IMG/VR virus record: IMGVR_UViG_3300044972_000465
Span: 1-53,574 of that record
DNA: 53,574 nucleotides
Origin: a virus
Direction: 5' to 3' (one strand)
In this document: piece by piece, positions 2,778-45,670 of the stretch
Numbering within the stretch: the first letter of the stretch is position 1
How the letters are laid out: each line of letters opens with the position of its first letter
Program-made: the position numbers and the translations under genes
The notes under the pieces: model-generated
Database searches by the model: none
What the model was told of the DNA's origin: nothing
Seen by the model: the letters and a program-made list of their open reading frames with translations, nothing else

Positions 2778-2784
2778 CGTACTA

Positions 2785-2798: not shown

Positions 2799-2802
2799 CC
2801 TT

Positions 2803-8248: not shown

Positions 8249-9541
8249 ATGACACAAGAACAAACTAAAATTATACCAATTATTTCCGAGAACGCTAGCT
8301 CAACAATATGTGCTGTGCCTTGGATGCATCTTGCATTTGAACCTAGCGGCAAAGTACTTCCATGTTGCTTAACTGCTTCACATAAAGTGTTTTCAGGTGA
8401 TCTTAAAACAATGACACTAGAAGAAGTATGGAATAGCGACAATCAAAAATCCATCCGAAAGGACATGATTGAAGGTAAAGAGCCACCCATATGCTCTAAA
8501 TGTTTCGACCGTGAACGAGTTACAGGCGAAAGCGCAAGAACATACCACCGTAGAGATTTTCAAGACGTAATTGACTCTATTCCAGACATTACTGAAGCAG
8601 ACGGCACATGTACTACCATGGATTTAAAATATTGGGATTTTCGTTTTAGTAACTTATGTAATTTTAAATGTCGCAGTTGTGGGCCAGCGTATAGCTCAGC
8701 ATGGGTACCAGATGCCACTAAGCTAGGCTATGCTGATCAAGAAAAAGTATGGAGTATTGGCAACGTAGGCGAGCAAACCAATTATGATTTCTTATATGAC
8801 CAAATTGACAATGTGCGACGAATATATTTCGCAGGCGGTGAGCCATTGCTTATGCCTGAACATTGGCAAATCTTAGATATGTTGGTTGCTAAAGAACGGT
8901 TTGATGTAAAACTAAGTTACAATACTAATTGTTCTGTGCTAGAGTACGGCAAGAAAAATATTATGGATTATTGGAGTAAATGGCAGTATGGTAAATTAGA
9001 AATATGGCCAAGTATTGATGAGATTGGAGAACGAGCAGAGCTAATACGATCAGGCACAGTATGGCCTAAGGTAGAAGCCAATTTGAAAAGACTGGCAACA
9101 TTAGACAATATCATACTTCGTCCGGGACTTACCATAGGAGCATTTAATGTGTTCCGATTGCCTGAAATGATTACTCATTTAGTTGATATCGGTGTTATTA
9201 GAGGTGATCCAAAGCGTAGAAGTCAAAATCACAATAACTTCTTTATTAATTTGTTAGAAAGTCCTATTTACTATCATGTAAGTATTCTGCCAGATGACTT
9301 CAAACACGAAATCATTCTTAAGTTGGAAAATTTTATAACAGAATTTAACGAGAAGCATGGAACTAACATTAGTAAATTGTTTGAACACATCTTATTTGAA
9401 TTAACTAAGCCGTTCAATGTATCAGCAGCTAAACATTTCTTAAGACAAACAGCAAAATTAGATGCGTTACGCAATGAAGATACATTTGAGATTATACCAG
9501 AGCTAAAATCAGTAAAGGTAGCATTAAATGTGGAAAAATGA
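8249..9541 (+). CDS. Twitch-domain radical SAM protein
   Basis: A radical S-adenosylmethionine enzyme with an N-terminal twitch-type iron-sulfur domain. N-terminal cysteines are C21, C39/C40 and the pair C82/C85 in PPICSKCFDRE. The core [4Fe-4S] motif CxxxCxxC is LCNFKCRSCGP (C137, C141, C144), and the SAM-binding GGEP is at 196-199 (YFAGGEPLL). The 430 residues fit known phage twitch radical SAM proteins, whose substrates are not known. It overlaps the next gene by 14 bases, so the two are probably co-translated partners. Four more radical SAM genes follow within 12 kb. Confidence 0.9.
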   Translation: MTQEQTKIIPIISENASSTICAVPWMHLAFEPSGKVLPCCLTASHKVFSGDLKTMTLEEVWNSDNQKSIRKDMIEGKEPPICSKCFDRERVTGESARTYHRRDFQDVIDSIPDITEADGTCTTMDLKYWDFRFSNLCNFKCRSCGPAYSSAWVPDATKLGYADQEKVWSIGNVGEQTNYDFLYDQIDNVRRIYFAGGEPLLMPEHWQILDMLVAKERFDVKLSYNTNCSVLEYGKKNIMDYWSKWQYGKLEIWPSIDEIGERAELIRSGTVWPKVEANLKRLATLDNIILRPGLTIGAFNVFRLPEMITHLVDIGVIRGDPKRRSQNHNNFFINLLESPIYYHVSILPDDFKHEIILKLENFITEFNEKHGTNISKLFEHILFELTKPFNVSAAKHFLRQTAKLDALRNEDTFEIIPELKSVKVALNVEK

Positions 9542-10547
9542 TCGAAGTTTGATAGTAACAGTTAGTAATAAAAACAATGAGCAGTTACATATTAAATTTA
9601 AAATTTTAGATACTGATCTAGGTGATAGATGGTTGGCAATGATCAAACAGAATCAAGAAGCCAATCATACTATACAAGCCAACTATAGAAGAATCTTAAG
9701 TCCAGAAGATCGTAAGGAAAACTTTGCTGAGTTTAGAGACAATATATTAAAAATTAACTCCATGTATGATGTTGCGTTAGATGATATTATATCATTAGAA
9801 CACTTACATGCCACCCAAGATGTACTTAATGATTTACATGAAGAATATGAGATTTATGGCGACAGACTACAGGAATTATTAGATACAAAATATTTTAATA
9901 ATCCTGATGATAAGCCTGAGTTAGCAAACGCAATATGGCCAGGCAAATGTCAAAACTTTGAACTACATGATAGATTCTTACGTTTAAATGAGCAGATACA
10001 TAATTTTGAAGCTATCTTTAGAAATTGGGAAACTCCTGATCAAGGACTATGTACTTGTTTAGTAGATTACTTACCAGCAGGCATACATCAGGATCTTAAA
10101 CCAGAAGACTTCTTCTTATTTGGTTCAGACTTGCAATGGGGATGGATGTACCTAGGGTACAACACCTTAGGTAAACATTGGTCAAGCGTACTAAATGAGA
10201 ATGATATTGAAGTAGTGAAACGGCATGCTGTTCGACCACAAGCAAGATTTGCGGCTGAGTTCTACATGCACTTTGGCCGTCCATCACTTACCTATGTCAA
10301 CAGAGTAAAGTTCTATAACTGGTGGATGAAGAATAATTTATCAGAAGTTCATGATCCTAATATGAAACTGTCTGAATTAGCATTAGGTTATATACCATTA
10401 GCCAGAATATCAGATTATAAAATTGGAGATGGTGAATCAATAACAATACCATTTACATACTCACACAAAGATGCAAAGGAATGGAATGTCAATGTCTGGA
10501 GTAAGTTTAATAAAATAGTTAGTATACAGATATTAGACGCTGGGTAG
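9528..10547 (+). CDS. Uncharacterised protein coupled to the radical SAM gene
   Basis: I do not recognise a family. The first 180 residues are rich in charged helices (EDRKENFAEFRDNIL, LNDLHEEYEIYGDRLQEL), and the middle is tryptophan- and aromatic-rich (FGSDLQWGWMYLGYNTLGKHW). It ends in a beta-rich tail. No signal peptide or membrane segment. Its ATG lies inside the end of the upstream twitch radical SAM gene (14-base overlap), which suggests a partner, substrate-handling or substrate protein for that enzyme. Its end overlaps the end of the opposite-strand gene by 15 bases. Confidence 0.7.
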   Translation: MWKNDRSLIVTVSNKNNEQLHIKFKILDTDLGDRWLAMIKQNQEANHTIQANYRRILSPEDRKENFAEFRDNILKINSMYDVALDDIISLEHLHATQDVLNDLHEEYEIYGDRLQELLDTKYFNNPDDKPELANAIWPGKCQNFELHDRFLRLNEQIHNFEAIFRNWETPDQGLCTCLVDYLPAGIHQDLKPEDFFLFGSDLQWGWMYLGYNTLGKHWSSVLNENDIEVVKRHAVRPQARFAAEFYMHFGRPSLTYVNRVKFYNWWMKNNLSEVHDPNMKLSELALGYIPLARISDYKIGDGESITIPFTYSHKDAKEWNVNVWSKFNKIVSIQILDAG

Positions 10548-11159
10548 AGCAGGTTGGTAATGATATATGTCATTACCAAGATACTTCCAATCAGTATTAG
10601 TATTTAAATTTATAAGGGAACTATGATTCTCAGAAAGAATACAATTTTTATTAGTTAGTATATTAAGATCAGTACCTTCTTCTAATATAGATTTGTATCC
10701 TAATGGACGATTCCTAACACATTGTTCCCATGCTGCTCCAAAAAAATATATATTTTTCACTTCAGGATGTAATAACAAATAGTATTCTAACTCCCACCAC
10801 CAATACATAGCCACTTGGTATTTTGATGGGTTTAGATAATTCCATATAATAGGATCTGTTTGTTCTGATTTAAAATTGTTATTACTATTAGCATATAACA
10901 AATCAAATGCTAATTTTAAATCAATAATTTTTTTTCTTATTGGATTTGTAAACAATGACATGTTATTATCAGCCCAAATAGAGTCGGGAGTGTATCGTTC
11001 TGTGTTACAATTGTAAGTCGCAAGTACTACTGTAGTAATACTTGCAGTAGTATCTAAGAAATTTATAATATTATTAAAACATTTTTTTGAACTGCTATTT
11101 TCTATGGGACTTTTCCAACAATCTATTAGAATGGCAATGCTGGGCAAGGAAATAATCAT
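10533..11159 (-). CDS. Uncharacterised phage protein (208 aa)
   Basis: No firm family. It starts with a hydrophobic strand and an acidic turn (SLPSIAILIDCW), has a second strand (TTVVLATYN) and a later LHPEVKNIYFFGAAWEQCV segment. This is an alpha/beta Rossmann-like order reminiscent of isochorismatase-like proteins, but the catalytic set is not evident. An upstream ATG at 11177 also fits, but it would place the CACTAAATA promoter-like box inside the coding region. ATG 11159 lies five bases after that box and is preferred. It is a lone minus-strand gene within the plus-strand cassette, probably a separately acquired unit. Confidence 0.55.
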   Translation of the reverse strand: MIISLPSIAILIDCWKSPIENSSSKKCFNNIINFLDTTASITTVVLATYNCNTERYTPDSIWADNNMSLFTNPIRKKIIDLKLAFDLLYANSNNNFKSEQTDPIIWNYLNPSKYQVAMYWWWELEYYLLLHPEVKNIYFFGAAWEQCVRNRPLGYKSILEEGTDLNILTNKNCILSENHSSLINLNTNTDWKYLGNDIYHYQPALPSV

Positions 11160-11164
11160 AAAAG

Positions 11165-11173
11165 TATTTAGTG
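11165..11173 (-). promoter_or_regulatory. Late-promoter-like box, left half of a divergent pair
   Basis: Reads CACTAAATA on the minus strand and ends five bases before ATG 11159. It is the exact reverse complement of the box at 11188-11196, forming a 9-base inverted repeat with a 14-base spacer. Confidence 0.45.
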
Positions 11174-11187
11174 ACATAAAATATAGG

Positions 11188-11196
11188 CACTAAATA
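11188..11196 (+). promoter_or_regulatory. Late-promoter-like box, right half of a divergent pair
   Basis: CACTAAATA reads rightward, 54 bases before ATG 11251. The leader that follows holds a small hairpin (TAGAAT 11212-11217 with ATTCTA 11223-11228). It mirrors the box at 11165-11173 and would drive the radical SAM operon. Confidence 0.45.
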
Positions 11197-11250
11197 GTGT
11201 TACAAATCAACTAGAATAATATATTCTACCTTAAATTAACATAGATACCA

Positions 11251-12189
11251 ATGAACAAAATAATTAGAATTCAGCAGCCGGATAATGCTCCTATGCATCT
11301 TACATGGATGATTAACAATATATGCACTAACCATTGTAGTTATTGCCCACCTAACTTACACGAAGGGAAGAATCATCATTATGAATGGGAGAATGCTAAA
11401 CGGTTTTTTGAAATATTATTTAAGAGATATCCAAAAATACATTGTAGTGTCAGTGGTGGAGAACCAAGTTTAAGTCCATTCTTCCCAGAGATTTGTAAAA
11501 CATTTCATGACGCAGGACATTCGATTGGATGTACATCTAACGCTGCTAAGCCGGCAAGTTATTGGCGAGATATTGCTCCTTACTTAGACTACATTAGTTT
11601 TTCATGGCATCCTGAATTTCCAGATAAAAACTTTTTAGAAAAAGTAGTTGCTGCTGCTAGACAAATAACTGTTACTGTTCGTGTAATGATGCTATCTAGT
11701 AAGTGGGACGAATGTATTTCGATGTTCAATGAATTCAGTGCCCGTTGGGAGTTTGTAACAGAACCAGTAAAAATTATGCCATATAATGATACTGATCCTA
11801 TATCATCGGTCTACACCGACGAACAATTAGCATGGTTTAATAATAATCAAGGAAATCATCGCATTTTAAAACACGTCCCTTATTATGAACCCGTTGAGAT
11901 AATAAGTGACTTTTATTTTGATGATGGCACTATCATAGAAAAAGCTAATGCTAGTGACTGGGTCAATCGTGGATATACTAATTTTAACGGATATACTTGT
12001 GAAATAGGTAAAAAATCATTATTTGTCAGGCCCAATGGAATAGTATACTTGGGCAATTGTTTAGTCGGTGGGAAAATTGGAAACATTAATAAACCTGAAA
12101 AAATTATGTGGCCTACTGATAATATCAAATGTAATATTGATTTATGTAGTTGCTCGAGTGATGTTAACATTAACAAGTGGATTGAATGA
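11251..12189 (+). CDS. Compact radical SAM protein, paralogue 1
   Basis: A radical SAM enzyme of 312 residues. The core cluster motif is NICTNHCSYCPP with C25, C29 and C32, and the SAM-binding motif is SGGEPS with GGEP at 70-73. The C-terminal third has a conserved cysteine set (TCEIGKKSL, GNCLVGG, KCNIDLCSCSSDVNINK), which could ligate an auxiliary iron-sulfur cluster in SPASM-like fashion. It starts with NKIIRIQQP directly before the cluster, with no twitch domain. It is followed immediately by a close paralogue (ATGA overlap at 12186), and a third lies at 19389. The substrate is unknown. Confidence 0.88.
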   Translation: MNKIIRIQQPDNAPMHLTWMINNICTNHCSYCPPNLHEGKNHHYEWENAKRFFEILFKRYPKIHCSVSGGEPSLSPFFPEICKTFHDAGHSIGCTSNAAKPASYWRDIAPYLDYISFSWHPEFPDKNFLEKVVAAARQITVTVRVMMLSSKWDECISMFNEFSARWEFVTEPVKIMPYNDTDPISSVYTDEQLAWFNNNQGNHRILKHVPYYEPVEIISDFYFDDGTIIEKANASDWVNRGYTNFNGYTCEIGKKSLFVRPNGIVYLGNCLVGGKIGNINKPEKIMWPTDNIKCNIDLCSCSSDVNINKWIE

Positions 12190-13136
12190 ATAAGATAATT
12201 AGGGTACAACAACCTAATAATGCTCCACTAAATTTAACATGGATCATTAATAATATATGTACTAACCATTGTTCATACTGTGCAACCAATTTACATATGG
12301 GCAAAAATCATAACTATGAATGGGCTAATGCCCTTAGATTTTTTGAAATGCTATTTAAAAAATATCCCAAAATACATTGTAGTGTCAGCGGAGGCGAGCC
12401 TAGCGTCAGTCCATTCTTTCCTGAAATTTGTAAACTGTTTTACGATCGTGGGCATACTATCGGGGTAACAACTAATCTAGCAAAACCTGTTAGGTATTGG
12501 AAAGAGTTAGCACCGTATCTAAATTACGCATCAATTTCGTGGCATTCGCAATTTGTTGATATAAACTTTTTAGAAAAAACATTAGCAGTAGCAGAATTAA
12601 TTCCAACTAATGTCCGTATATTAATGCTGCCTGGACAATGGGAACAATGTGTGGCGGCATACAATAAGTTATCTAAAATAGATAAATTTACAATAGAACC
12701 AGTAATGATACAGGACAAACGTGGGATGGATTCAAGTGCTCATGTATATAATGTTCCCCAACAAATGTGGTTTGAACAAAATAGACCTGACAACACAGGC
12801 AAGATGTTGCATTTGAATCGTAGAGATGTACCCGGACTAGGTGCTACATATTTTTTCCAAGATGGTACAAGTATAGAAAATGCCAATACCACAGACTTAG
12901 TTAATAGCGGGTTAACTCATTTTAAAGGATATGATTGCGAAATCGGATTAAAATCACTTTACATTGATTACAATGGAGTAGTATTCGCCGGTAACTGTTG
13001 TGTCGGAGGTCCATTGGGATCTATTAATGATCCAGAAAATATCACATGGGTAACACAACCTGTTAAATGTAATGTAAATTTATGCCATTGTGACACTGAT
13101 GTTTCTATCAATAAAAGGATTGATAATGTTTTGTAA
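12186..13136 (+). CDS. Compact radical SAM protein, paralogue 2
   Basis: Tandem paralogue of the preceding gene, 316 residues. It has the same core spacing (NICTNHCSYC, C25/C29/C32), GGEP in SGGEPSVSPFF, and the same C-terminal cysteine pattern (DCEIGLKSL, GNCCVGG, KCNVNLCHC) ending in DVSINK. The two differ most in the segment between about residues 150 and 230, where a radical SAM enzyme usually contacts its substrate. They may therefore act on different substrates or different sites of one. It overlaps the next radical SAM gene by 11 bases. The operon structure suggests a joint pathway. Confidence 0.88.
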   Translation: MNKIIRVQQPNNAPLNLTWIINNICTNHCSYCATNLHMGKNHNYEWANALRFFEMLFKKYPKIHCSVSGGEPSVSPFFPEICKLFYDRGHTIGVTTNLAKPVRYWKELAPYLNYASISWHSQFVDINFLEKTLAVAELIPTNVRILMLPGQWEQCVAAYNKLSKIDKFTIEPVMIQDKRGMDSSAHVYNVPQQMWFEQNRPDNTGKMLHLNRRDVPGLGATYFFQDGTSIENANTTDLVNSGLTHFKGYDCEIGLKSLYIDYNGVVFAGNCCVGGPLGSINDPENITWVTQPVKCNVNLCHCDTDVSINKRIDNVL

Positions 13137-14274
13137 ATTTTTAACTAATACCTATCATTTTACCTATGATAATGTAAAACCATGTTGCTGGATTAAGCAT
13201 ACTCCACAAACGCAAGTTAATATACTTGACATAGATAAAATTAAAGAAACTTTTTTAAATTTAAACAAAGTTGATGACTGGCTTCCAGAGTGTAGCTATT
13301 GCTATGATTTAGAAAAAGCTGGAACTGATTCTCCTAGAACTATATCCAATACTAATACGTCAGTATACACTAATAACGATCCAATTGGTGATCCTATTAA
13401 AATTGAATTGCAATTAGATGATGATTGTAATGCCGCTTGTTTAATGTGTGGGACTTGGAATAGTACTACATGGCAGCAATACGAAACAAAAACACTCAAA
13501 CTTAAAAGTCCAACCTATAGATGGAATACAACTGTCGAAGACCGTATTAATACTGTCACTGAAATAATTGATTTTTCTAAAGTAAAACAAATACATTTCT
13601 TTGGTGGCGAACCATTCAAAACTAATACACAACTAAGAATGTTAAAATTAGTTAAAAATCCAAAGGATGTAAACCTTGTATATGTGACAAATGGAAGTTT
13701 GTTTCCATGTGAAGAAACACTAGAATTATGGAAAAAATTTGGAGATGTAAATGTAGCAGTTAGTATTGATGCCATTGGTGAACAATTTAATTATTTAAGG
13801 TGGCCATTACAATGGCATCAAGTCGAAGCTAATTTAGAAAAATATTTTTTATTAAAACATTCTAATTTAGTGATAAATCTTAGTTTTACTGCCACTCCTT
13901 TTAACATGTTTTACATAGATACCTATACCGAATGGGCAAAGAAATTTGCTATTGGAAAACATAATACTACTAAGATAGAAAAATGGTTTCTTAACCCGCA
14001 TCCAGTCGTTGGTCTAGAAATGAATATGAACTCTATACCCCCTGCCTTACAAGAAGTTATTAAACAAAAATATGGTGAAGATAGTAGAATTTCTAAAATA
14101 ATGAGCCCATTTGATGTACAGAAGTGCCAATACATGCTCAATTATATTAACTATCACGATAGACATAGAAAATCAAATTGGAAAGAAGTATTTCCAGAAA
14201 TTGTAGATTATTTTGATATGGATAAACTATCACCAGTACCAAAATACAAAGTTTGGGAAATAAAAAGTATATGA
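13126..14274 (+). CDS. Twitch-domain radical SAM protein, second copy
   Basis: A radical SAM enzyme of 382 residues with an N-terminal twitch-like domain. The N-terminal cysteines are C3, C20/C21 and C56/C59 (PECSYCYDLE); the core CxxxCxxC is DDCNAACLMCGT (C101, C105, C108); GGEP is at 160-163 in HFFGGEPFK. Distantly related to the protein at 8249. ATG 13126 is chosen over 13090 because AAAAGGA precedes it at normal spacing and residues 1-3 then provide a family-typical early cysteine. It overlaps the SGNH hydrolase gene downstream by ATGA. Confidence 0.88.
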   Translation: MFCKFLTNTYHFTYDNVKPCCWIKHTPQTQVNILDIDKIKETFLNLNKVDDWLPECSYCYDLEKAGTDSPRTISNTNTSVYTNNDPIGDPIKIELQLDDDCNAACLMCGTWNSTTWQQYETKTLKLKSPTYRWNTTVEDRINTVTEIIDFSKVKQIHFFGGEPFKTNTQLRMLKLVKNPKDVNLVYVTNGSLFPCEETLELWKKFGDVNVAVSIDAIGEQFNYLRWPLQWHQVEANLEKYFLLKHSNLVINLSFTATPFNMFYIDTYTEWAKKFAIGKHNTTKIEKWFLNPHPVVGLEMNMNSIPPALQEVIKQKYGEDSRISKIMSPFDVQKCQYMLNYINYHDRHRKSNWKEVFPEIVDYFDMDKLSPVPKYKVWEIKSI

Positions 14275-15107
14275 AAACATTAAGAATATACGGCGATAGT
14301 TTTGCCGCAAGAGAAGATGTTGGACGTCCTCCGCTTGCTTCAGGTTGGGGTGTAATGCTTGGAAATTTATTAGGACTTCCTGTAAAAAATAAGGCTATAT
14401 CTGGTAGTAGCACAGAATATGCCATCAAATTATTTGTAGACGATGTTGAAAATAATATCATAGATGATAATGATATTATCATATTTTTACCAAGTTCGAC
14501 TGGTAGATTGTATTTCACCTATCAATTAACAGAAGCTCCAGAAACAGCTAGTCTTTATTTACATGTCCCACAACACTATGTTCCGCAAGAATGGTATTGG
14601 AAAAACAAAGATCATATTGAATGGTGGATGGTCAATCATAATCGACGTATGCAAGAAATTACACATGAATCATATATACAACTTTTAAAAAATTTTGCTG
14701 TTAGCAATCCTTCGTGTACCGTTATAGTTTTGCCTACTTTTCCCGGAAAGTATAAAAAAAACATTTTTGATAATATAACTTCTACAAATTTTTTAAGAGC
14801 CAATATCTTTCTTATGAATATTAATCAATCCGAAGTAGGAATAAAACACGAAGAAAATTTTGATTATAAATGGTGGACTGAATTTACTAAAATTGATCCT
14901 AGGTCCAATCATTTAACTATTCCTAATTTAACTATACTAGCTAATTTGTTGGTAGAATCAATTCAAAATTCATCAATCGACAATATTACATATGATAAAT
15001 TTAAAACTAATGTTATTGAAAAAATTACATCCAAAGAACAATATTTAAAATATGTAGCGAATGGGCTAATACCAAATAGATATGATATATTAAATAATCT
15101 TAAATGA
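14271..15107 (+). CDS. SGNH/GDSL-family hydrolase-like protein A
   Basis: A 278-residue SGNH-type hydrolase, probably an esterase or deacetylase acting on carbohydrate. Block I is RIYGDSF with catalytic serine S10, a block II-like glycine is in AISGSSTEYA, and the block V Asp/His pair is in DPRSNHLTIPN. The segment KDHIEWWMVN and a C-terminal DKFKTNVIEKITSKEQYL signature are shared with the proteins at 17139 and 18032, so these form a paralogous trio. ATG 14271 overlaps the twitch radical SAM stop as ATGA. No signal peptide, so it acts in the cytoplasm or is carried on virions. Confidence 0.75.
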   Translation: MKTLRIYGDSFAAREDVGRPPLASGWGVMLGNLLGLPVKNKAISGSSTEYAIKLFVDDVENNIIDDNDIIIFLPSSTGRLYFTYQLTEAPETASLYLHVPQHYVPQEWYWKNKDHIEWWMVNHNRRMQEITHESYIQLLKNFAVSNPSCTVIVLPTFPGKYKKNIFDNITSTNFLRANIFLMNINQSEVGIKHEENFDYKWWTEFTKIDPRSNHLTIPNLTILANLLVESIQNSSIDNITYDKFKTNVIEKITSKEQYLKYVANGLIPNRYDILNNLK

Positions 15108-15778
15108 ACACACAACCAAATTTTCCGCCAGATCTACTTGAGTTTTATAATCAAAACAAAGACTTCGCAAATCCAACATATACTAACTTTCAAGAATCAC
15201 ATGATGATCCAGAATGTGTGTATTATCCTATCAAGTTTGACTTTGATACTGAATTATTACTAACCGAGTGTAAGTCAGTAGATGACTTGTACTTCAATCA
15301 TCGAGGACAAGACAAGAAAAAAGGGTACGGACACGAAGGGTGGCAAAGTTTGACACTACATGGTATTGACAAACACAAGACCGAGCATTATACTAAGTAT
15401 GGGTTCACAAATGCTACAGAAGCTGGATATCATTGGACCGATGCGTGTGAGCGTGTACCTAACTTATACAAATTTTTAAGTAGTTTACCATTTACAGAAT
15501 TTGATCGTGTACGTATTATGCGACTTGCGCCAGGTGGATACATTATGCCACATAGTGATAATAAATTTGAAAGAGCATTTAGTCCATTAAATATTGCTAT
15601 TAATAATCCAGAGGGATGTCATTTTGTTTTTAAGAATAAAGGTATAGTACCATTTAAACCTGGTACTGGATTAGTGTTAGATGTTGGCACTGAACATATT
15701 GTCATTAATAACAGCAATGAAGTTAGATACCATGTCATTGTACATGGAAATTACGATAAAGGGTTTTACAGTTTATGA
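15104..15778 (+). CDS. Aspartyl/asparaginyl beta-hydroxylase-like oxygenase, second copy
   Basis: A 224-residue 2OG/Fe(II) oxygenase-like protein of the same broad group as the one at 5043. The HxD is GGYIMPHSDN with H150 and D152, the distal histidine is H198 in GTEHIVINNS, and R208 in EVRYH is the probable 2OG-binding arginine. The N-terminal half (WQSLTLHGIDKHK, YHWTDACERVP) is a phage-specific extension. It is ATGA-coupled to the SGNH gene before it and to the 455-residue protein after it. The substrate is unknown; protein or glycan hydroxylation is possible. Confidence 0.8.
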   Translation: MNTQPNFPPDLLEFYNQNKDFANPTYTNFQESHDDPECVYYPIKFDFDTELLLTECKSVDDLYFNHRGQDKKKGYGHEGWQSLTLHGIDKHKTEHYTKYGFTNATEAGYHWTDACERVPNLYKFLSSLPFTEFDRVRIMRLAPGGYIMPHSDNKFERAFSPLNIAINNPEGCHFVFKNKGIVPFKPGTGLVLDVGTEHIVINNSNEVRYHVIVHGNYDKGFYSL

Positions 15779-17142
15779 ATGTAGTATACACAAGACGATT
15801 TTTTGAAGGTAAAAAAGTAAAATTTGCTGTTGTTGATGAAGCAAGAGTGGCCGAAAAACACACTGAACTGTTTAATAAAGTTCGTGACTTAACTTTCTCA
15901 CTGACTTCAAGAATGATAACTCCTATCGTCGAAGGTAAAGTTATGTTTTATAACAACATTGATGATGCAATGAATGATAGTTTAGATTTTGATTTAATCT
16001 TTATTCAATCAGTTGGTAATCTAATCAAAAGCAATGTATTACTGGAACAAATTGAACAGTATAGTATAGACAATCCAGACTTTTTTACGTTGGCATTTAC
16101 ATTGGATTGGCAAAGTGAGAATGGTTCCGGGTGGGTTGAAATACATCATCAGATGATGTTTGTTAACATCAACAAATGGAAAGAGATAGGATCTCCTAAA
16201 TTTGGCGGGTGGGATACAGTAACAGAAGAACTTCCTAACTATATACGTTCAAAAGAGAACTTTCATGATCGATATACACCATATTGGATGCAAGGTTCTG
16301 AAGGCACAACAGTAGGCACTAGAACTAGCCAAGGATATGGATTTCTAAAAGCTGCGTTTGCCAATGGTATTAAGATAGACAACTTTACTGATGAAATGCG
16401 TAAATGTAGATTGTTTATCTATCCTGAATCAGATACAGATAACCTATATGAAGCATTTATAAAACGTAATACAAAGTTAGTATCCAACTCTAATCAAAAG
16501 AAATGGATAAAAACATTCAAACTTGCGCCTACTATTTGGGTATATAACAGTGAACGATATTACTTTCATGGTAATAAAAAGTGTGATACGTACTTTGGCA
16601 CAGCATCAGGGTTTAAATATCTTGATATACTAAATGGAAATGATACTGTGAAATTTGTGTTTTATGACTTTCATGAAAAATCACTTGACTGGATCAAAAA
16701 ACTTAAAGAAACTTGGGATGGCAATGATTTTCCAAAGTATCTAGCAAAACAGTCAGATGACTTTAAGCAATATTACAAATACATCAATGGCAGCATTGAA
16801 GAAAATCAAAAACTTTTGTTTTCTGACTTTGGCAGTGAAGAAAAATTCAAAGAACTATGGAATAGATTTAAAACCTGTGAAGTTGAGTATGTAAAATGCA
16901 ACTTATTTGAACTTGACGAAGTTAAAAGTTTGTTGTCTAAGACTATAGGAGGCACTCCGTTCTTTTTTTATAGTAACATATTTGCCACTGACTATACTAT
17001 GATAAATTTTACACTAGAAGAAATAACCAAAAAATATAATGACTTTTTAGATGCGATATTTGCAGCATACCCGACTGCTATTACAAATGGCAGCACTCAA
17101 CTAGGCGATTGGGTAGAATATACAGTAACGGATAGGCAATGA
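15775..17142 (+). CDS. Uncharacterised two-domain phage protein (455 aa)
   Basis: I cannot assign a family with confidence. Residues about 1-260 contain FDLIFIQSVGN and LAFTLDWQSENGSGWVEIHHQMMFVN, an alpha/beta layout similar to nucleotide-sugar-binding phage proteins. From about 265 on a second region reads CDTYFGTASGFKYLDIL, VKFVFYDFHEKSLDWIKKL and GTPFFFYSNIFATDY, which has the strand/acid/strand order of class I methyltransferase-like Rossmann folds. A glycosyltransferase-methyltransferase fusion is one reading, and a novel phage fold is the other. It is ATGA-coupled on both sides, between an oxygenase and an SGNH hydrolase. Confidence 0.65.
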   Translation: MNVVYTRRFFEGKKVKFAVVDEARVAEKHTELFNKVRDLTFSLTSRMITPIVEGKVMFYNNIDDAMNDSLDFDLIFIQSVGNLIKSNVLLEQIEQYSIDNPDFFTLAFTLDWQSENGSGWVEIHHQMMFVNINKWKEIGSPKFGGWDTVTEELPNYIRSKENFHDRYTPYWMQGSEGTTVGTRTSQGYGFLKAAFANGIKIDNFTDEMRKCRLFIYPESDTDNLYEAFIKRNTKLVSNSNQKKWIKTFKLAPTIWVYNSERYYFHGNKKCDTYFGTASGFKYLDILNGNDTVKFVFYDFHEKSLDWIKKLKETWDGNDFPKYLAKQSDDFKQYYKYINGSIEENQKLLFSDFGSEEKFKELWNRFKTCEVEYVKCNLFELDEVKSLLSKTIGGTPFFFYSNIFATDYTMINFTLEEITKKYNDFLDAIFAAYPTAITNGSTQLGDWVEYTVTDRQ

Positions 17143-17942
17143 AAACATTAAGAGTATATGGTGATAGTTTCGGTGCTAATATGCAGGTTATGACATGGCC
17201 TACTATGCTTAAAGAAAAATTACAAATCCCACTAGTCAATAAAGCTATACATGGCGGCAGCACAGAATATGCTTCGTTACAATTTGTCAACGATGTGAAT
17301 GTTATCGGCGATGATGATATCGTCATTTATATTCCCAGTACTAAAGGAAGATTGCACTTTGATTTCCAAATTTCAAATCGGCCAGATACAGCAGCAGACT
17401 ACTGTCATGAACCCAATGTACGACCAGATTATGACAATAGTTGGTACTATAAAAATAAAGAACATATAGAATGGTGGATGGTTAATGCATCACATGATGT
17501 AATTTCTATGAACTTTGAAAGTTATGTACATGTAATAAGCAATGTAGCAAGATCAAAACCCAATGCTACGTTTATAATGTTAAAACACCAACCATGGGAT
17601 CATATTCCTAATATAGTTCACCCTGCCAATTTTTTAATTCCTCCTATATCATTTACTAACATAACTTCTAATGAAATTATCGGAGGGTATAATTATACGG
17701 ACTTTGTAGAATTTACTAAAACTGACCCTAGGTCCAATCATTTAACTATTCCCAATTTAAAAATATTAACTGAGCTAGTACACGAAACTATTATCACACA
17801 ATCTGTAGAACATTTTACAATGGATAAATTTAAAACTAATGTGATTAAAAAAATAACTTCTAAAGAGCAATATTTAGAATATGTTACACAAGAGTATGTG
17901 TATTATAGACACGCAATATTAAACAATTTGCCACAGTTATGA
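17139..17942 (+). CDS. SGNH/GDSL-family hydrolase-like protein B
   Basis: A 267-residue member of the SGNH trio. Block I is RVYGDSF with S10, followed by HGGSTEYA; the Asp/His pair is in DPRSNHLTIPN, with the shared KEHIEWWMVN and C-terminal DKFKTNVIKKITSKEQYL segments. It is much closer to the copy at 18032 than to the one at 14271, down to a 92-base identical DNA stretch near the end. The ATG overlaps the stop of the 455-residue gene. Its own stop overlaps the start of a broken methyltransferase-gene remnant, which marks a tandem duplication. Confidence 0.75.
   Translation: MKTLRVYGDSFGANMQVMTWPTMLKEKLQIPLVNKAIHGGSTEYASLQFVNDVNVIGDDDIVIYIPSTKGRLHFDFQISNRPDTAADYCHEPNVRPDYDNSWYYKNKEHIEWWMVNASHDVISMNFESYVHVISNVARSKPNATFIMLKHQPWDHIPNIVHPANFLIPPISFTNITSNEIIGGYNYTDFVEFTKTDPRSNHLTIPNLKILTELVHETIITQSVEHFTMDKFKTNVIKKITSKEQYLEYVTQEYVYYRHAILNNLPQL
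17795..17886 (+). repeat. Copy 1 of a 92-base exact direct repeat
   Basis: These 92 bases, from CACACAATCTG to GAATATGTTA, recur without mismatch at 18703-18794. They encode the conserved C-terminal segment of SGNH proteins B and C. The surrounding genes are also similar at DNA level, so this is the best-preserved part of a tandem gene duplication. Confidence 0.9.
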
Positions 17943-18016
17943 TACCAAAGTATGCATTTTCAAACGAGCAAACGGATAGTAAACTATACTACAACTCTAG
18001 GTTAAATATACAGTGA
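17939..18016 (+). pseudogene. Remnant of the duplicated methyltransferase gene (first 25 codons)
   Basis: ATG at 17939 overlaps the stop of SGNH protein B as ATGA and opens a frame of 25 codons, ending at TGA 18014-18016. Its peptide (MIPKYAFSNEQTDSKL...) matches the start of the methyltransferase at 18847 (MINKDAFSNGQMDSKL...), and the DNA matches too (GCATTTTCAAA, GGATAGTAAACTAT versus GGATAGCAAGCTAT). The similarity then stops. This is what remains of the methyltransferase copy after the SGNH-methyltransferase pair was duplicated in tandem. It could still be translated as a short peptide. Confidence 0.75.
18001..18008 (+). promoter_or_regulatory. Late-promoter-like box
   Basis: GTTAAATA lies 23 bases before ATG 18032, and the leader carries AGGTGA as a Shine-Dalgarno sequence. 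It arose within or next to the broken methyltransferase remnant and would restart transcription for the second SGNH copy. Confidence 0.4.
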
Positions 18017-18031
18017 TTGATAGGTGATAAC

Positions 18032-18850
18032 ATGAAAACATTAAGAATATATGGCGATAGTTTTGGTGTCAGCAATGATCCAGGAATGCAGACATGGGCA
18101 GTACTGCTCAAAGAAAAGTTACAAATTCCACTAATCAATAAAGCAGTAGGAGGGGGTAGTACCGAATATGCTGCACTACAATTCGTAAATGATGCTCAAA
18201 ATAATGTTATCGGAGATGATGATATTGTGGTTTACATACCTAGCACTAAGGGGAGATTACATTTTGATTTTCAAATTTCAAATCATCCAGAAACAGCGGC
18301 AGGTTATTGCCATGGTCCCGACACAAGACCACATATTGACAATAGTTGGTACTACAAAAGTAAAGAGCATATTGAATGGTGGATGGTTAATGCGTCACCT
18401 GATATAATTTCCATGAACTTCGAAAGTTATGTACATGTAATAAGCAATGTAGCAAGATCAAAACCCAATGCTACATTTATAATGTTAAAACATCAACCAT
18501 GGAAACACCATATTCCTAATATAGTTCACCCTGCCAATTTTCTAATACCTCCAATACTTTTTACTGATATTACAACAAGAGAAATTATCGGAGGGTATAA
18601 ATATATGGACTTTGTGGAATTTACTAAATTTGATCCTAGAGCTAATCATTTAACTATTCCCAATTTAAAAATATTAGCTGAGTTAATATACGAAACCATT
18701 ACCACACAATCTGTAGAACATTTTACAATGGATAAATTTAAAACTAATGTGATTAAAAAAATAACTTCTAAAGAGCAATATTTAGAATATGTTAACCAAG
18801 GGTATTTGGATTATAGCCATTACATACATAAAAATTTAATAAATCTATGA
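18032..18850 (+). CDS. SGNH/GDSL-family hydrolase-like protein C
   Basis: A 272-residue SGNH-type protein, the recent duplicate of the one at 17139. Block I is RIYGDSF (S10), with GGGSTEYA, the pair in DPRANHLTIPN, and the shared KEHIEWWMVN and TNVIKKITSKEQYL segments. The frame extends to TTG 18017, but ATG 18032 is preferred because AGGTGA precedes it at good spacing and the protein then begins MKTLRIYGDSF exactly like copy A. Its stop overlaps the methyltransferase start as ATGA. Having three copies suggests either different acyl/glycan substrates or hetero-oligomers. Confidence 0.78.
   Translation: MKTLRIYGDSFGVSNDPGMQTWAVLLKEKLQIPLINKAVGGGSTEYAALQFVNDAQNNVIGDDDIVVYIPSTKGRLHFDFQISNHPETAAGYCHGPDTRPHIDNSWYYKSKEHIEWWMVNASPDIISMNFESYVHVISNVARSKPNATFIMLKHQPWKHHIPNIVHPANFLIPPILFTDITTREIIGGYKYMDFVEFTKFDPRANHLTIPNLKILAELIYETITTQSVEHFTMDKFKTNVIKKITSKEQYLEYVNQGYLDYSHYIHKNLINL
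18703..18794 (+). repeat. Copy 2 of a 92-base exact direct repeat
   Basis: Identical to 17795-17886. The 908-base offset between copies gives the period of the tandem duplication that includes the SGNH gene and the start of the methyltransferase gene. Confidence 0.9.
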
Positions 18851-19389
18851 TAAACAAAGACGCATTTTCAAATGGGCAAATGGATAGCAAGCTATGGCTA
18901 TGTCGTGAACTTGAAAATTTAGGATGGGATAGTAAACTTACCCGTATATATGCCGGATGGTATGGTATAACTGGATTCTTACTGTTAAGTAGAGAAAAGT
19001 TTATGGTTGATCGTATTGAAAGCTATGATTTAGATCCTACTTGTGAATCAATCGCTGACATGATAAATGAAAATTGGGTTATTAAGGAATGGAAGTTTAA
19101 AGCATATACAAAAGATTGTAATATAGAATTGCCTGGAAACCCAGATTTAATAATTAACACTAGCACAGAGCATTTTGACTCTATGGATTGGTTTGATAAC
19201 ATTCCTAAGGGAACTAGAGTTATACTTCAAGGCAATGATATGCCGCATGACGATCATGTGGTGCATTCTGCTACATTGGATGATTTCATTGACCAATATC
19301 CGCTAACAAGTATTGATTATTACGATAGTTTAGACTTTGTGTATCCTGATTCACAGTTTACACGTTATATGATAATTGGAGTTAAGTGA
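18847..19389 (+). CDS. Class I SAM-dependent methyltransferase-like protein
   Basis: A 180-residue protein with a Rossmann-type methyltransferase layout. LTRIYAGWYGITGFLL (31-46) is the strand 1/SAM-binding region, though glycine-poor. It is followed by the acidic-end strand 2 IESYDLDP (57-64) and a strand-4-like PDLIINTSTEHF followed by a RVILQGND strand. Small stand-alone methyltransferases of this type occur in T4-like phages; the substrate is unknown. It is ATGA-coupled to SGNH protein C, and a broken copy of its start follows SGNH protein B. The next radical SAM gene begins at TGATG. Confidence 0.72.
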   Translation: MINKDAFSNGQMDSKLWLCRELENLGWDSKLTRIYAGWYGITGFLLLSREKFMVDRIESYDLDPTCESIADMINENWVIKEWKFKAYTKDCNIELPGNPDLIINTSTEHFDSMDWFDNIPKGTRVILQGNDMPHDDHVVHSATLDDFIDQYPLTSIDYYDSLDFVYPDSQFTRYMIIGVK

Positions 19390-20357
19390 TGGCATTACCT
19401 AAAATAAACGTAGTAAGACAGCATAGTGAAAGTGTAACTCATATTACTTGGATTGTCAACAACATTTGCCCAAACAGTTGTGTTTACTGTCCACCCTCAA
19501 CACACAATGGCTCTAATCACAATTACGATTGGGACAATGCCAGAAGATTCTTAGACTTATTATTCCAACGATACCCTAAATTACATTTCTCTATCGGGGG
19601 CGGTGAACCTAGTATGAGTCCATTCTTCCCAGAGTTGGTCAAACTGATACATACCGCAGGGCACAGTATTACTATAACATCAAACGCATACAAAAGTCAA
19701 GAGTATTGGCAAGAAATCGGCCCTTACATTAATCAGATATCCTTTAGCTATCATCCTGAATTCTCAACAGATCAATACTTCAACAATGTCCTAGCAACAG
19801 CGGAGGTAACCCGTGTATCGGCCCGTGTAATGATGCTAAGTAGTCACTGGGATAAGTGTATCCAAGCATATAACAAGCTACTAGAACATGATGGGTATAG
19901 CGCAGAAGTTGTGCGAGTGTATGAGTGGGGGCGACAAAACAGCAGCGACAAATATACACAGGAACAGATTGAATGGATGGATACAGCCAAACCACGTTTT
20001 CCACGAGCAGACAATCCACACAGACATAAACCCTGGTTCAACTTAGGAGCTGAATACATATTTGATGATGGCACAATAGGGTACAGTAAAGATCAAGTAT
20101 ATTATATTAACCGTGGACAAACAAACTTTAAAGACTACGAGTGTGATGTAGGATTACGCAGCTTATTCATTGGAGCTACAGGTAACGTTAAAAGAGGTAA
20201 CTGTATGGCAGGAGGAATTATAGGTAACATTAATACACCTGAGTTCATACACTGGCCAACTGAATCTATTATCTGTCCATACAATATATGTAACTGTTCA
20301 AGCGATGTTAACATTAATAAGCGTAGAATCCCAATAAAAATACTTAATATTAAGTAA
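19389..20357 (+). CDS. Compact radical SAM protein, paralogue 3
   Basis: A 322-residue radical SAM enzyme paralogous to those at 11251 and 12186. The core motif is NICPNSCVYCPP with C27, C31 and C34, GGEP is in GGGEPSMSPFF, and the C-terminal cysteines are in ECDVGLRSL, GNCMAGG and ICPYNICNCSSDVNINK. It is the most diverged of the three, separated from the other two by the SGNH block. A GTG at 19386 is in frame just upstream, but ATG 19389, one base overlapping the previous stop (TGATG), is the likelier start. Its stop abuts the stop of the opposite-strand gene, with no spacer. Confidence 0.88.
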   Translation: MALPKINVVRQHSESVTHITWIVNNICPNSCVYCPPSTHNGSNHNYDWDNARRFLDLLFQRYPKLHFSIGGGEPSMSPFFPELVKLIHTAGHSITITSNAYKSQEYWQEIGPYINQISFSYHPEFSTDQYFNNVLATAEVTRVSARVMMLSSHWDKCIQAYNKLLEHDGYSAEVVRVYEWGRQNSSDKYTQEQIEWMDTAKPRFPRADNPHRHKPWFNLGAEYIFDDGTIGYSKDQVYYINRGQTNFKDYECDVGLRSLFIGATGNVKRGNCMAGGIIGNINTPEFIHWPTESIICPYNICNCSSDVNINKRRIPIKILNIK

Positions 20358-21290
20358 TTACCAACCTTCTTGTCTGCGTATTACATCAATTTCACGAACC
20401 ATTATGCCTTGGTTGTGCCAGTTACTATGATAGTGACGCTTAAAAAACTTACTAGCAGTTTCATCTAGCATTGTTATCGGAAGATCTAATTGTGTATGCA
20501 AATCAGGCGCAATCCTAGCAGCAACATGCTCTGGGTTATGCCCATCGATAGTATCATATATCAGTTTAAGCGCATTAAAATCTTGTACCTGTGTGTAATC
20601 CCAAGTTGAGTTAATCATAAGCATGTAGGTGCCCATACGAGCTCCCAATATAGCCCAAATACCATTCTCAACATCTCTGCCTACATTATGCCATATAGTT
20701 AAGTGATCAAGATTACGATGATGAACACGTTTTCTAAAATCTTGTATACTAGGTTTAGATCCGCGATCTAAACACATCTTAACCCCTTCCCTAAACCCAG
20801 CTCTCCATGCTTGAAACGGTGATCCATTTGGATATGTTGTTGAATAACAGTCATGCATAGCCCAGTATAATGGATCAAAGCAAAATTCTACTTGAGTTTC
20901 AACTTTGCCATCAGTATTTTCATGTGTTTTCATGTCATTGATAAACGTGCGAGTCCATGAACTAATTCCTCCATTGCCATACATCAATCCATTAATATTA
21001 TTACGTGCTCTCCATCGATATACAGCTTGTTCCCATTGTTCATCTGGAAATTCAAGTATTAGATCAAAAAAATCATCTTCAGGAAGATTATCACCGTCAA
21101 TTAAAATAAATCTTTCAGTTTCACTAGCAGCAGCAGCAGCTTTATGGGCCGCATCTGATCCAACAACTCCGTCGACCCGCTTTGCCCAGGGCACTATGTT
21201 TTTAATGTTGACCCAAAACTTTTCTTTTTGTGGTTCGTCATACGAAAGATATACTACATCTAAATCTGCTACATCTACTCTTGTCGTCAT
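20358..21290 (-). CDS. Glycosyltransferase-like protein, stand-alone paralogue
   Basis: A 310-residue GT-A-like protein. It opens with LDVVYLSYDEP, then AKRVDGVVG, AHKAAA and the DxD-type ILIDGDN (D65/D67), and later YGNGGISSW and FQAWRAGFREGVKM. These match the C-terminal domain of the protein at 6554 in order and spacing, so the two are paralogues. This one lacks the N-terminal repeats and has its own C-terminal helical part (DYTQVQDFNALKLI onward). The start is ATG 21290, overlapping the upstream stop as ATGA; a longer frame to 21356 would run through the neighbouring gene. The donor and acceptor are unknown. Confidence 0.75.
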   Translation of the reverse strand: MTTRVDVADLDVVYLSYDEPQKEKFWVNIKNIVPWAKRVDGVVGSDAAHKAAAAASETERFILIDGDNLPEDDFFDLILEFPDEQWEQAVYRWRARNNINGLMYGNGGISSWTRTFINDMKTHENTDGKVETQVEFCFDPLYWAMHDCYSTTYPNGSPFQAWRAGFREGVKMCLDRGSKPSIQDFRKRVHHRNLDHLTIWHNVGRDVENGIWAILGARMGTYMLMINSTWDYTQVQDFNALKLIYDTIDGHNPEHVAARIAPDLHTQLDLPITMLDETASKFFKRHYHSNWHNQGIMVREIDVIRRQEGW

Positions 21291-21604
21291 ACTATATTCC
21301 AGTTTACATGAGGCAATGCTGTGCCAACCACTATACTTACATCGTGTGGGTGACATGGTACTCCATATGTTGTAGGAGTTATTTTTGTTATTACATTTGT
21401 ATCAAGAGTCACTAGTTTACCATCAATTACTCGAATGTGAGTATGAGGTGTATTGTATGTAGTCTGATCAAGATCTATATAATTACCAGGTAAATCTTCT
21501 TGACTAAAAAATAATGGAAGTCCTTGTTCGTCATGATACAGCCTATAAAATACAGGTTTTATCTCTATAGGCTGCAATGCTGCCCAAAATTCTTCTTCAT
21601 TCAT
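21287..21604 (-). CDS. Small conserved phage protein of unknown function (105 aa)
   Basis: Begins MNEEEFWAALQP and contains YRLYHDEQGLPLFFSQEDLPG and a beta-rich C-terminal half (IRVIDGKLVTLDTN). From memory, proteins of this size and opening are common among aquatic myoviruses, but no function is known to me. It is soluble with no catalytic motif. It is coupled on both sides (overlap of eight bases upstream, ATGA downstream) within the glycosyltransferase operon, so it may assist those enzymes. Confidence 0.7.
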   Translation of the reverse strand: MNEEEFWAALQPIEIKPVFYRLYHDEQGLPLFFSQEDLPGNYIDLDQTTYNTPHTHIRVIDGKLVTLDTNVITKITPTTYGVPCHPHDVSIVVGTALPHVNWNIV

Positions 21605-23112: not shown

Positions 23113-23414
23113 CGTTTTTTGTTTAATTCTTCGTATTCAGTATGCCAGTCTTGCATACATACTTCCCATTTATCACGCATAAGGCTTAATAGAGTTGCTG
23201 CGTGAACTTTAATGGGATTTCCATACATATCCAACACAACAACTAGTTTATCACCACACAGGGCAAAAAATGTAATCATTTCAGGAGTTGTTTCAAACAT
23301 GCCTCCATTCCAGCCAAAAATTAGCCGTGCTTGATATTTTTCTTTGAGAGTTCGTTTTGCGGCGGCGTGGTCAAACCTAGCCCGCGAGTGTGCGACTAAT
23401 TTATCAGTATCCAT
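23109..23414 (-). CDS. Small conserved phage protein of unknown function (101 aa)
   Basis: A 101-residue helical protein with ARFDHAAAKRTLKEKYQARL near the start, a FGWNGGMFETTPEM turn and an amphipathic helix at the end (WEVCMQDWHTEYEELNKKR). I recall similar proteins in T4-like aquatic phages, without known function. It is the first gene after the structural terminator, so it opens a new transcription unit that continues into the glycosyltransferase genes. A TATAATA box lies just before its ATG. Confidence 0.7.
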   Translation of the reverse strand: MDTDKLVAHSRARFDHAAAKRTLKEKYQARLIFGWNGGMFETTPEMITFFALCGDKLVVVLDMYGNPIKVHAATLLSLMRDKWEVCMQDWHTEYEELNKKR

Positions 23415-45237: not shown

Positions 45238-45256
45238 GGTCGTTCCAATGTTACAG

Positions 45257-45664: not shown

Positions 45665-45670
45665 AATATG

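What the first reader, a model, noticed from the sequence alone, without database searches (positions are those of the whole stretch)
8249..20357. Five radical SAM genes in 12 kb of a phage genome
The sequence shows five proteins with CxxxCxxC and GGEP: two with N-terminal twitch-type cysteines (8249, 13126) and three compact paralogues with a SPASM-like C-terminal cysteine set (11251, 12186, 19389). They are linked by ATGA-type overlaps to SGNH hydrolases, an AspH-like oxygenase and a methyltransferase. Single twitch radical SAM genes are known in phages; a coupled set of this size suggests a multi-step modification pathway of unknown product. The variable region between the GGEP motif and the C-terminal cysteines could give each compact enzyme its own substrate.
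Basis: partly seen in the sequence, partly recalled or inferred. Interest (0 to 1): 0.85.

Follow-up and report, generated by a model that had tools for sequence, protein, structure and literature searches.

The report
Radical-enzyme island beside phage tail genes
This virus of bacteria carries five enzymes of a powerful radical-chemistry family beside the genes for its tail tip; a relative of the same enzyme sits at that place in every adequately long related virus contig checked, which suggests that such viruses chemically decorate their attachment proteins or their host's surface by an unstudied route.

Summary
Five intact radical SAM (rSAM) genes lie at 8249-20357. Two belong to the known N-terminal-twitch family NF033640. 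Three are compact paralogues that match no named family. All are under purifying selection.

They form a real unit. N-twitch rSAM, compact rSAM, an AspH-type oxygenase, I15775 (GT-A-like plus methyltransferase fold) and G9528 (no PDB match) co-occur across dozens of independent viral contigs. They also occur as natural fusions (NTwi=cSAM, G=cSAM, cSAM=I, G=AspH, AspH=I).

A wider rule appeared. When I searched with the neighbouring tail protein O, all 56 loci with at least 6.5 kb beyond O carried 1-6 N-twitch rSAMs, almost always in the order Q-P-O-N-M-L-J-NTwi. The five-gene cluster is thus an elaborate case of a fixed tail-locus feature.

Multi-rSAM phages were already reported, so cluster size is not new. 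The composition, fusions and tail linkage appear to be, though only open-access literature was searched. Chromosomal relatives of the compact rSAM lie in microcin-like clusters with GG-leader precursors, which hints at a protein substrate.

Best reading: a post-translational modification island for the phage adhesin (0.42). Main rival: host-envelope glycan remodelling (0.30). No substrate is proven.

The parts
8249..9541 (+). rSAM1: N-terminal-twitch radical SAM protein (NF033640)
   Evidence: 359 bits vs cut-off 170; N-terminal SPASM segment PF13186; dN/dS 0.02-0.03
9528..10547 (+). G9528: core protein of unknown fold; no PDB match, relatives only in phages among those found
   Evidence: AlphaFold pLDDT 81; PDB no match; BFVD matches in uncultured phages and Agrobacterium phage Atu_ph07; found fused to compact rSAM and to AspH
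10533..11177 (-). H10533: unknown, only in close relatives
11251..12189 (+). rSAM2: compact radical SAM with C-terminal Cys set
   Evidence: PF04055 above cut-off; invariant Cys; dN/dS 0.04-0.07
12186..13136 (+). rSAM3: compact radical SAM paralogue
   Evidence: PF04055 above cut-off; dN/dS 0.03-0.04
13090..14274 (+). rSAM4: second N-twitch radical SAM (ATG at 13126)
   Evidence: 186 bits vs cut-off 170; most divergent rSAM of the set, about 66% aa identity to orthologues
14253..15107 (+). SGNH-like protein 1 (ATG at 14271); missing from two close relatives
   Evidence: GDSF and DxxH motifs by eye; no family hit; absent from G003 and G004
15104..15778 (+). AspH2: aspartyl/asparaginyl beta-hydroxylase-type Fe(II)/2OG oxygenase
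   Evidence: PF05118 46.6 bits vs 22.6; HxD/E present in 45/45 relatives; fused to I in 4 clusters and to G in 2
15775..17142 (+). I15775: GT-A-like N-terminal domain plus class I methyltransferase-like C-terminal domain
   Evidence: AlphaFold pLDDT 89; Foldseek to NNMT-type methyltransferases, PBCV-1 capsid glycosyltransferase, COLGALT1; fused to AspH or to compact rSAM in relatives
17139..17942 (+). SGNH-like protein 2
   Evidence: motif only; tandem copy of SGNH3
18017..18850 (+). SGNH-like protein 3, the conserved copy
   Evidence: present in G001, G003, G004
18847..19389 (+). MT18847: methyltransferase-like protein
   Evidence: motif only, no Pfam hit; recurs in 22 of 67 clusters
19386..20357 (+). 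rSAM5: compact radical SAM paralogue (ATG at 19389)
   Evidence: PF04055 above cut-off; absent from relative G001
20358..21356 (-). J: GT-A-like protein with DGD motif, often the immediate neighbour of the N-twitch rSAM
   Evidence: no Pfam hit; 52/58 clusters in the tail-seeded search; J-NTwi overlap of about 6 bp is common
21597..22331 (-). L: glycosyltransferase-like (EAD motif)
   Evidence: motif only; 56/58 clusters
22309..23112 (-). M: glycosyltransferase-like (DAD motif)
   Evidence: motif only; 56/58 clusters
23109..23414 (-). N: small conserved protein between the tail gene and M
   Evidence: 56/58 clusters
23478..24431 (-). O: Thr-rich (22%) tail-locus protein; candidate substrate
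   Evidence: composition; followed by N-twitch rSAM in 56/56 adequately long loci
24454..25656 (-). P: tail fibre/virion protein
   Evidence: PHROG tail fibre and virion hits; homologue in Atu_ph07 at 306 bits
25708..26313 (-). Q: conserved phage protein
   Evidence: phrog_11259
26501..41806 (-). Giant 5101-aa structural protein upstream of Q-P-O
   Evidence: homologue in G001; similarly placed giant structural gene in Atu_ph07
6554..8167 (+). F6554: has a domain related to J (GT-A-like)
   Evidence: 31-35% identity to J over about 211 residues in orthologues

Best explanation
This is a post-translational modification island at the tail-tip locus of a large tailed phage. The most likely job is to modify the phage's own attachment protein(s), with O (23478-24431) as prime candidate. 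Proposed course: AspH2 hydroxylates side chains. GT-A-like enzymes (J, L, M and the N-terminal domain of I15775) glycosylate them, and I15775 and MT18847 methylate the product. The N-twitch and compact rSAMs make radical changes (cross-link, epimerisation, C-H functionalisation) on the protein or its attached sugar. SGNH proteins trim or transfer acyl groups. Gene-by-gene variation between phages would then vary the decoration and so receptor recognition. Shown: gene content, catalytic motifs, purifying selection, co-occurrence, fusions, and the fixed tail-locus position of N-twitch rSAM. Inferred: the substrate, the chemistry and the order of steps.
For: Tail linkage: all 56 loci with at least 6.5 kb beyond O carry 1-6 N-twitch rSAMs, on the tail-gene strand in 55, in the order Q-P-O-N-M-L-J-NTwi. 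Coupling: in I-seeded contigs 31 of 32 clusters have G, 31 AspH, 27 N-twitch, 19 compact rSAM; in G-seeded contigs 35 of 37 have N-twitch. Fusions NTwi=cSAM, G=cSAM (4 clusters), cSAM=I, G=AspH (2), AspH=I (4). Peptide hint: chromosomal compact-rSAM relatives in 5 genomes all sit in one cluster with GG-leader precursor, HlyC, GT2, HlyD and Peptidase_C39 ABC exporter. Fold: I15775 resembles GTs that act on proteins (PBCV-1 capsid GT, COLGALT1), weakly, plus a methyltransferase. Parallel: in Atu_ph07 and Phosso the same tail position, after homologues of Q and P and a giant structural gene, holds an rSAM/SPASM gene next to a protein ending CHxSCHxSCHxSRxRR. That rSAM's best NCBIfam matches are peptide maturases. 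Selection: dN/dS 0.02-0.07 for rSAM1, rSAM2, rSAM3, MT and I.
Against: No protein or peptide substrate is identified. No precursor-peptide gene fits between the module genes. O in this family has no RiPP-like tail. Sugar-nucleotide, carbamoyltransferase and dehydrogenase genes often lie nearby, which fits a free glycan equally well. In a 22-locus T4-like cluster G and an AspH=I fusion sit among replication genes with no rSAM within 10 kb, so the sub-module is not tied to the tail. The G-AspH-I core is absent from nearly all O-seeded loci. The bacterial relatives of the compact rSAM are only distant (about 220-228 bits to the profile, one interrupted copy lower).
Confidence: 0.42

Rival explanations
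1. Host-envelope remodelling: the enzymes build or tailor an unusual sugar on host LPS or capsule during infection, to block superinfection or hide receptors. The tail position reflects the phage host-recognition island, where such genes gather.
For: Neighbours in independent phages include GDP-mannose dehydratase, NAD epimerases, UDP-glucose dehydrogenase, GT7 and NodU-type carbamoyltransferase. The window has an epimerase-like ORF at 1263-2207. A relative has a sugar-modification-like set beside an N-twitch rSAM. Pelagimyophage authors propose O-chain modification for GTs in the same kind of island (PMC7029224). Vibrio phage K566 interleaves four N-twitch rSAMs with GT-like genes and has a PagP-annotated gene nearby.
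Against: Does not explain why N-twitch rSAM follows O in 56/56 loci. Chromosomal compact-rSAM relatives sit with GG-leader peptides rather than in O-antigen clusters.
Confidence: 0.3
2. A secreted or intracellular small molecule or modified peptide (RiPP-like) is made by the cassette and acts on the host or on competitors.
For: Compact-rSAM relatives in bacteria are in microcin-like clusters with an exporter. The toolbox (rSAM, hydroxylase, methyltransferase) resembles proteusin-type pathways (from general knowledge).
Against: No exporter, protease or precursor gene in the window cluster. The tail-gene linkage is unexplained.
Confidence: 0.1
3. Nucleotide or DNA hypermodification: oxygenase, GT-A and methyltransferase act on phage DNA or precursors.
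For: In one T4-like group G and AspH=I lie among clamp, clamp-loader and recombination genes.
Against: AspH (PF05118) is a protein/lipid hydroxylase family as far as known (general knowledge). The N-twitch linkage is to tail genes.
Confidence: 0.05
4. No shared pathway: an unrelated pile-up of auxiliary genes in a hypervariable region.
For: The region is variable: rSAM5, SGNH1 and the 2740-6523 block come and go among close relatives.
Against: Core co-occurrence, recurrent fusions and low dN/dS.
Confidence: 0.05

Closest known systems
N_Twi_rSAM (NCBIfam NF033640), twitch domain-containing radical SAM proteins
   Same: rSAM1 and rSAM4 exceed the curated cut-off; multiple copies per phage, as in Vibrio phage K566
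   Different: The model name gives no function; linkage to the Q-P-O-N-M-L-J tail block was not found in the papers searched
Campylobacter group II phages CP220/CPt10 rSAM modules (PMC2853527)
   Same: Many rSAM genes (11-12) in one phage, five in one exchangeable module
   Different: Those clusters each carry a putative glycine amidinotransferase; authors suggest metabolic fitness; no AspH/G/I core seen in the passages read
Pelagimyophage host-recognition cluster with GTs and radical SAM cassettes (PMC7029224)
   Same: Tail fibres, GTs and rSAM cassettes in one variable island
   Different: rSAM mentioned only as variable cassettes; no N-twitch/O linkage, core or fusions in the passages read
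Jumbo-phage rSAM clusters with cupin or 2OG oxygenases (FLC6, SURPRISE13, pPa_SNUABM_DT01, Atu_ph07, Phosso)
   Same: Several rSAMs, some with 2OG oxygenases or a cupin, next to structural genes; Atu_ph07 and Phosso share the Q-P-giant context
   Different: rSAM/SPASM genes there resemble RiPP maturases and sit beside proteins with a CHxSCHxSCH tail, absent from this window
Microcin-like chromosomal clusters with GG-leader precursor and a compact rSAM relative (found here)
   Same: Compact rSAM homologue at 220-228 bits to the phage profile
   Different: Dedicated C39 exporter and short precursors, which the phage lacks

Membership tests
Radical SAM superfamily | CxxxCxxC cluster motif and GGEP in the core domain | tested here: met
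   All five ORFs; invariant in compact relatives; 117/117 and 116/117 in N-twitch relatives; PF04055 curated cut-off passed by four, rSAM1 below it
N_Twi_rSAM NF033640 | Score above curated cut-off 170 bits over the full model | tested here: met
   rSAM1 359.1 bits, rSAM4 186.0 bits; rSAM5 only 18.2, and rSAM2/rSAM3 not listed
SPASM/twitch auxiliary-cluster proteins | SPASM domain hit and Fe-S ligation by auxiliary Cys | tested here: inconclusive
   rSAM1 N-terminal PF13186 hit above cut-off; compact proteins no hit but 4-5 conserved C-terminal Cys; ligation not testable here
AspH-type Fe(II)/2OG oxygenase (PF05118) | Curated cut-off and HxD iron-binding motif | tested here: met
   46.6 vs 22.6 bits; HxD/E in 45/45 relatives
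RiPP biosynthetic gene cluster | Short precursor-peptide gene beside the maturase | tested here: not met
   Module genes overlap or are at most 75 bp apart on the + strand; the only longer gap holds H on the - strand; tail proteins O lack a Cys- or Gly-rich core
Phage host-recognition island with rSAM cassettes (pelagimyophage type) | rSAM genes contiguous with tail fibre and GT-like genes | tested here: met
   Window layout; near-universal in relatives
Pelagimyophage lineage itself | Phylogenetic placement by core genes | not tested
   No core-gene tree was built; host unknown
Bifunctional glycosyltransferase-methyltransferase (I15775) | GT-A fold with catalytic site; class I methyltransferase with SAM site | tested here: inconclusive
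   Fold matches to both but weak (best E 5e-4); by eye no DxD at the expected strand end

The most novel reading that the evidence does not exclude
A large group of tailed phages uses radical SAM chemistry, together with hydroxylation, methylation and glycosylation, to mature its own tail-tip adhesin. This would be a virus-encoded post-translational modification system that diversifies receptor binding by chemistry rather than by sequence.
Probability: 0.38. Interest if true: 0.88.

Novelty: new variant of a known kind. Interest (0 to 1): 0.7.

Why it matters
Phage rSAM genes have been noted since at least 2010 without a proven function. Here one family (N-twitch) is tied to a specific place, beside the tail-tip genes, in every adequately long contig tested, and a defined enzyme core is tied together by natural fusions. 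That turns a list of auxiliary genes into a testable system. Cultured phages with related clusters exist (Vibrio phage K566, Agrobacterium phage Atu_ph07, Burkholderia phages FLC6 and SURPRISE13), so virion mass spectrometry could settle the substrate. If virion proteins prove to be modified, phage host recognition gains a chemical layer invisible to sequence-based host prediction.

Tried and rejected
(1) PDB sequence search: only distant rSAM relatives (tetraether synthase, viperin-like), no functional lead.
(2) tblastn of rSAM5, I15775 and G in cultured phages: little or nothing, as the module as a whole was not found in that collection.
(3) Genome-contig scan with the compact profile: only two contigs of one Rickettsiales MAG, which carry phage tail genes.
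(4) G9528 against PDB: no match.
(5) Glycine-rich substrate idea, from the Gly-rich microcin precursors: the window's tail proteins are not Gly-rich.
(6) CH-tail RiPP idea for this window: O proteins have no such tail; kept as a separate observation.
(7) Bacterial hit to the I15775 methyltransferase domain (G356): uninformative neighbourhood.
(8) A first co-occurrence count used an I profile contaminated by AspH=I fusions; it was redone with clean profiles.
(9) 'DNA modification' was considered because of the T4-like replication-region loci and given low weight.
(10) Literature search for the CH-tail motif returned only noise.
Full report
WHAT IS THERE. The window is a 53,574-base IMG/VR phage fragment with baseplate, hub and virion genes on the minus strand. 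Five intact radical SAM (rSAM) genes lie on the plus strand between 8249 and 20357 and are the only five PF04055 matches of the contig. rSAM1 and rSAM4 are members of NCBIfam NF033640 (N-terminal twitch; 359 and 186 bits, cut-off 170). The three compact proteins match only the general rSAM core and score far below cut-off for every named family. Between them lie G9528 (unknown), AspH2 (PF05118), I15775, three SGNH-like proteins and a methyltransferase-like protein, mostly joined by 4-base overlaps. The SGNH and methyltransferase (18847) calls rest on motifs only.

CLOSE RELATIVES. Three non-identical IMG/VR contigs keep the gene order at about 83-97% protein identity for most genes. rSAM4, SGNH1, the epimerase-like gene and, in one case, rSAM5 are more divergent. 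rSAM5 is missing from one (and the third ends before it), SGNH1 from two and SGNH2 from all three. The 2740-6523 block (desaturase, PP-loop protein, GNAT-like, AspH1, TauD) is missing from one. dN/dS is 0.02-0.07 for rSAM1, rSAM2, rSAM3 and MT, with I at 0.06-0.07, AspH2 at 0.06-0.08 and G at 0.05-0.09; rSAM4 and SGNH1 are looser at 0.16-0.23. The set is therefore used, not decaying.

DISTANT RELATIVES. Searches of the viral collection seeded by the compact rSAM (73 loci), by I15775 (80 kept of 218) and by G9528 (78) give 67 nucleotide-level clusters. With clean profiles, I-seeded clusters contain G in 31/32, AspH2 in 31/32, N-twitch rSAM in 27/32 and compact rSAM in 19/32. G-seeded clusters contain N-twitch rSAM in 35/37, and I and AspH2 in 28/37 each. 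AspH2 and N-twitch were not used as seeds, so their presence is not an effect of selection. Single ORFs fuse NTwi=cSAM (735 aa, L110), G=cSAM (4 clusters), cSAM=I (813 aa, 1 cluster), G=AspH (2 clusters) and AspH=I (4 clusters). Fusions of this many pairs are strong evidence for one pathway or complex.

THE TAIL LINK. Relatives often carry the same genes before the rSAMs: Q, P, O, N, M, L, J, which are the window's minus-strand genes from 26313 down to 20358. I therefore searched with O alone (at least 518 relatives, best 80 kept, 58 clusters). P and Q are present in 58/58 clusters, N, M and L in 56/58, J in 52/58 and N-twitch rSAM in 50/58. Of the loci with at least 6.5 kb beyond O, 56 of 56 carry N-twitch rSAM, 43 of them two to six copies; J often overlaps the first one by about 6 bases. 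So N-twitch rSAM is a constant partner of this tail block, while G-AspH-I-compact rSAM is an accessory sub-module (nearly absent from the O-seeded set, present in more distant phages). In the window and its closest kin the island faces the tail genes from the opposite strand; in 55 of 56 O-seeded loci it runs with them. Caveat: the 80 loci are the nearest to this O, not a sample of all phages, and some are related to each other.

PROTEIN STRUCTURE. I15775 is modelled well (pLDDT 89) as a GT-A-like domain plus a class I methyltransferase-like domain. The best PDB matches are NNMT-type methyltransferases, AGPase-type nucleotidyltransferases, the PBCV-1 capsid glycosyltransferase and collagen hydroxylysine galactosyltransferase; all are weak (E 5e-4 and worse). 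No DxD is visible at the usual place (by eye), so GT activity is not certain. G9528 (pLDDT 81) has no PDB match and only phage matches in BFVD, including cultured Agrobacterium phage Atu_ph07.

WHAT KIND OF SUBSTRATE. Two lines disagree. (a) Neighbour genes in independent phages are rich in sugar enzymes: carbamoyltransferase, GDP-mannose dehydratase, epimerases, UDP-glucose dehydrogenase, GT7, and cultured Vibrio phage K566 interleaves N-twitch rSAMs with GT-like genes. (b) Chromosomal relatives of the compact rSAM (5 of 395 genomes of one order, one gene interrupted) all lie in one conserved cluster: HlyC, SelO-like, GT2, a GG-leader precursor (MYNLSVDEISMVDGGGDG plus a variable core), rSAM, HlyD, Peptidase_C39 exporter, hexapeptide acyltransferase. 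This looks like a peptide-maturation system. A sixth chromosomal relative (G344) had an uninformative neighbourhood. In Atu_ph07 and Phosso the same tail position holds rSAM/SPASM genes whose best NCBIfam matches are peptide maturases (DynA, PapB), next to a protein ending CHxSCHxSCHxSRxRR. Together with the constant tail linkage I favour modification of a virion protein (0.42) over host-glycan remodelling (0.30). The two are not exclusive: a glycosylated, radical-modified adhesin would fit both lines.

WHAT IS KNOWN. Multi-rSAM phages are not new: 11-12 in Campylobacter phages CP220/CPt10, including an exchangeable five-gene module (PMC2853527); 12 in a TARA T4-like genome (PMC5332604); rSAM cassettes in pelagimyophage host-recognition islands (PMC7029224); rSAM plus 2OG oxygenases in jumbo phage FLC6 (PMC8066314). 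I found no description of the five-family core, its fusions, or the N-twitch/tail constancy in the held open-access library; subscription papers were not searchable. I therefore file it as a new variant of a known kind.

LIMITS. No substrate, product or host is shown. SGNH, MT18847, J, L and M are motif-level calls. Cluster counts depend on contig length and on degenerate-pattern scans that miss divergent members.

Noticed in passing
L268:16119-17009 (Atu_ph07), L269:13062-13982 (Phosso), L270:15060-15620 (FLC6), L271:15025-15561 (pPa_SNUABM_DT01), L272:15060-15620 (SURPRISE13); 120 viral stretches: Phage proteins with differing N-terminal parts share a C-terminal tail CHxSCHxSCHxSRGRR, beside rSAM/SPASM genes resembling RiPP maturases. 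The scan found 136 ORFs with this tail at the C-terminus, 84 with an rSAM-like ORF within 3 kb; no match in 398 Pseudomonadota genomes. Possibly RiPP-like maturation of phage proteins.
   Followed up: partly
G005 contig C6 (NZHE01000012.1) = L395-L396, 6906-34077: A contig with phage tail genes, binned in a Rickettsiales MAG, carries about 17 rSAM-like ORFs in 27 kb after P-O-N-M-L-J, the first being a natural N-twitch=compact fusion.
   Followed up: partly
L417:5162-14220 and L423-L426: Conserved microcin-like bacterial cluster: HlyC, SelO-like, GT2, GG-leader precursor(s), compact rSAM, HlyD, Peptidase_C39 ABC exporter, hexapeptide acyltransferase; an undescribed-looking peptide system.
   Followed up: partly
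window 2740-6523: Fatty-acid desaturase, QueC/PP-loop-like, GNAT-like, AspH and TauD genes form a block that is cleanly absent from one close relative (G003); a distant compact rSAM sits with similar genes in L107.
   Followed up: partly
G001 (IMGVR_UViG_3300003375_000013) 40696-48868: Sugar-modification-like gene set (by eye: GT2, C-methyltransferase-like, cupin, SDR, nucleotide-sugar dehydrogenase, epimerase) followed by another N-twitch rSAM, in the 177-kb relative.
   Followed up: no
L150 and the 21 other loci of its cluster: T4-like genomes with G and a fused AspH=I protein among clamp and clamp-loader genes and no rSAM within 10 kb, so the sub-module also exists apart from rSAM and tail genes.
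   Followed up: partly
L033:4770-5806: G9528 orthologue split into two overlapping ORFs in relative G003 (frameshift or assembly error).
   Followed up: no
window 26501-41806: A 5101-aa structural ORF; Atu_ph07 and Phosso carry similarly placed giant structural genes (about 4450 and 4555 codons from their coordinates).
   Followed up: no
L185:12006-13463 and other neighbours: NodU/NolO-type carbamoyltransferases recur beside the core: 7 of 121 sampled neighbour proteins.
   Followed up: no
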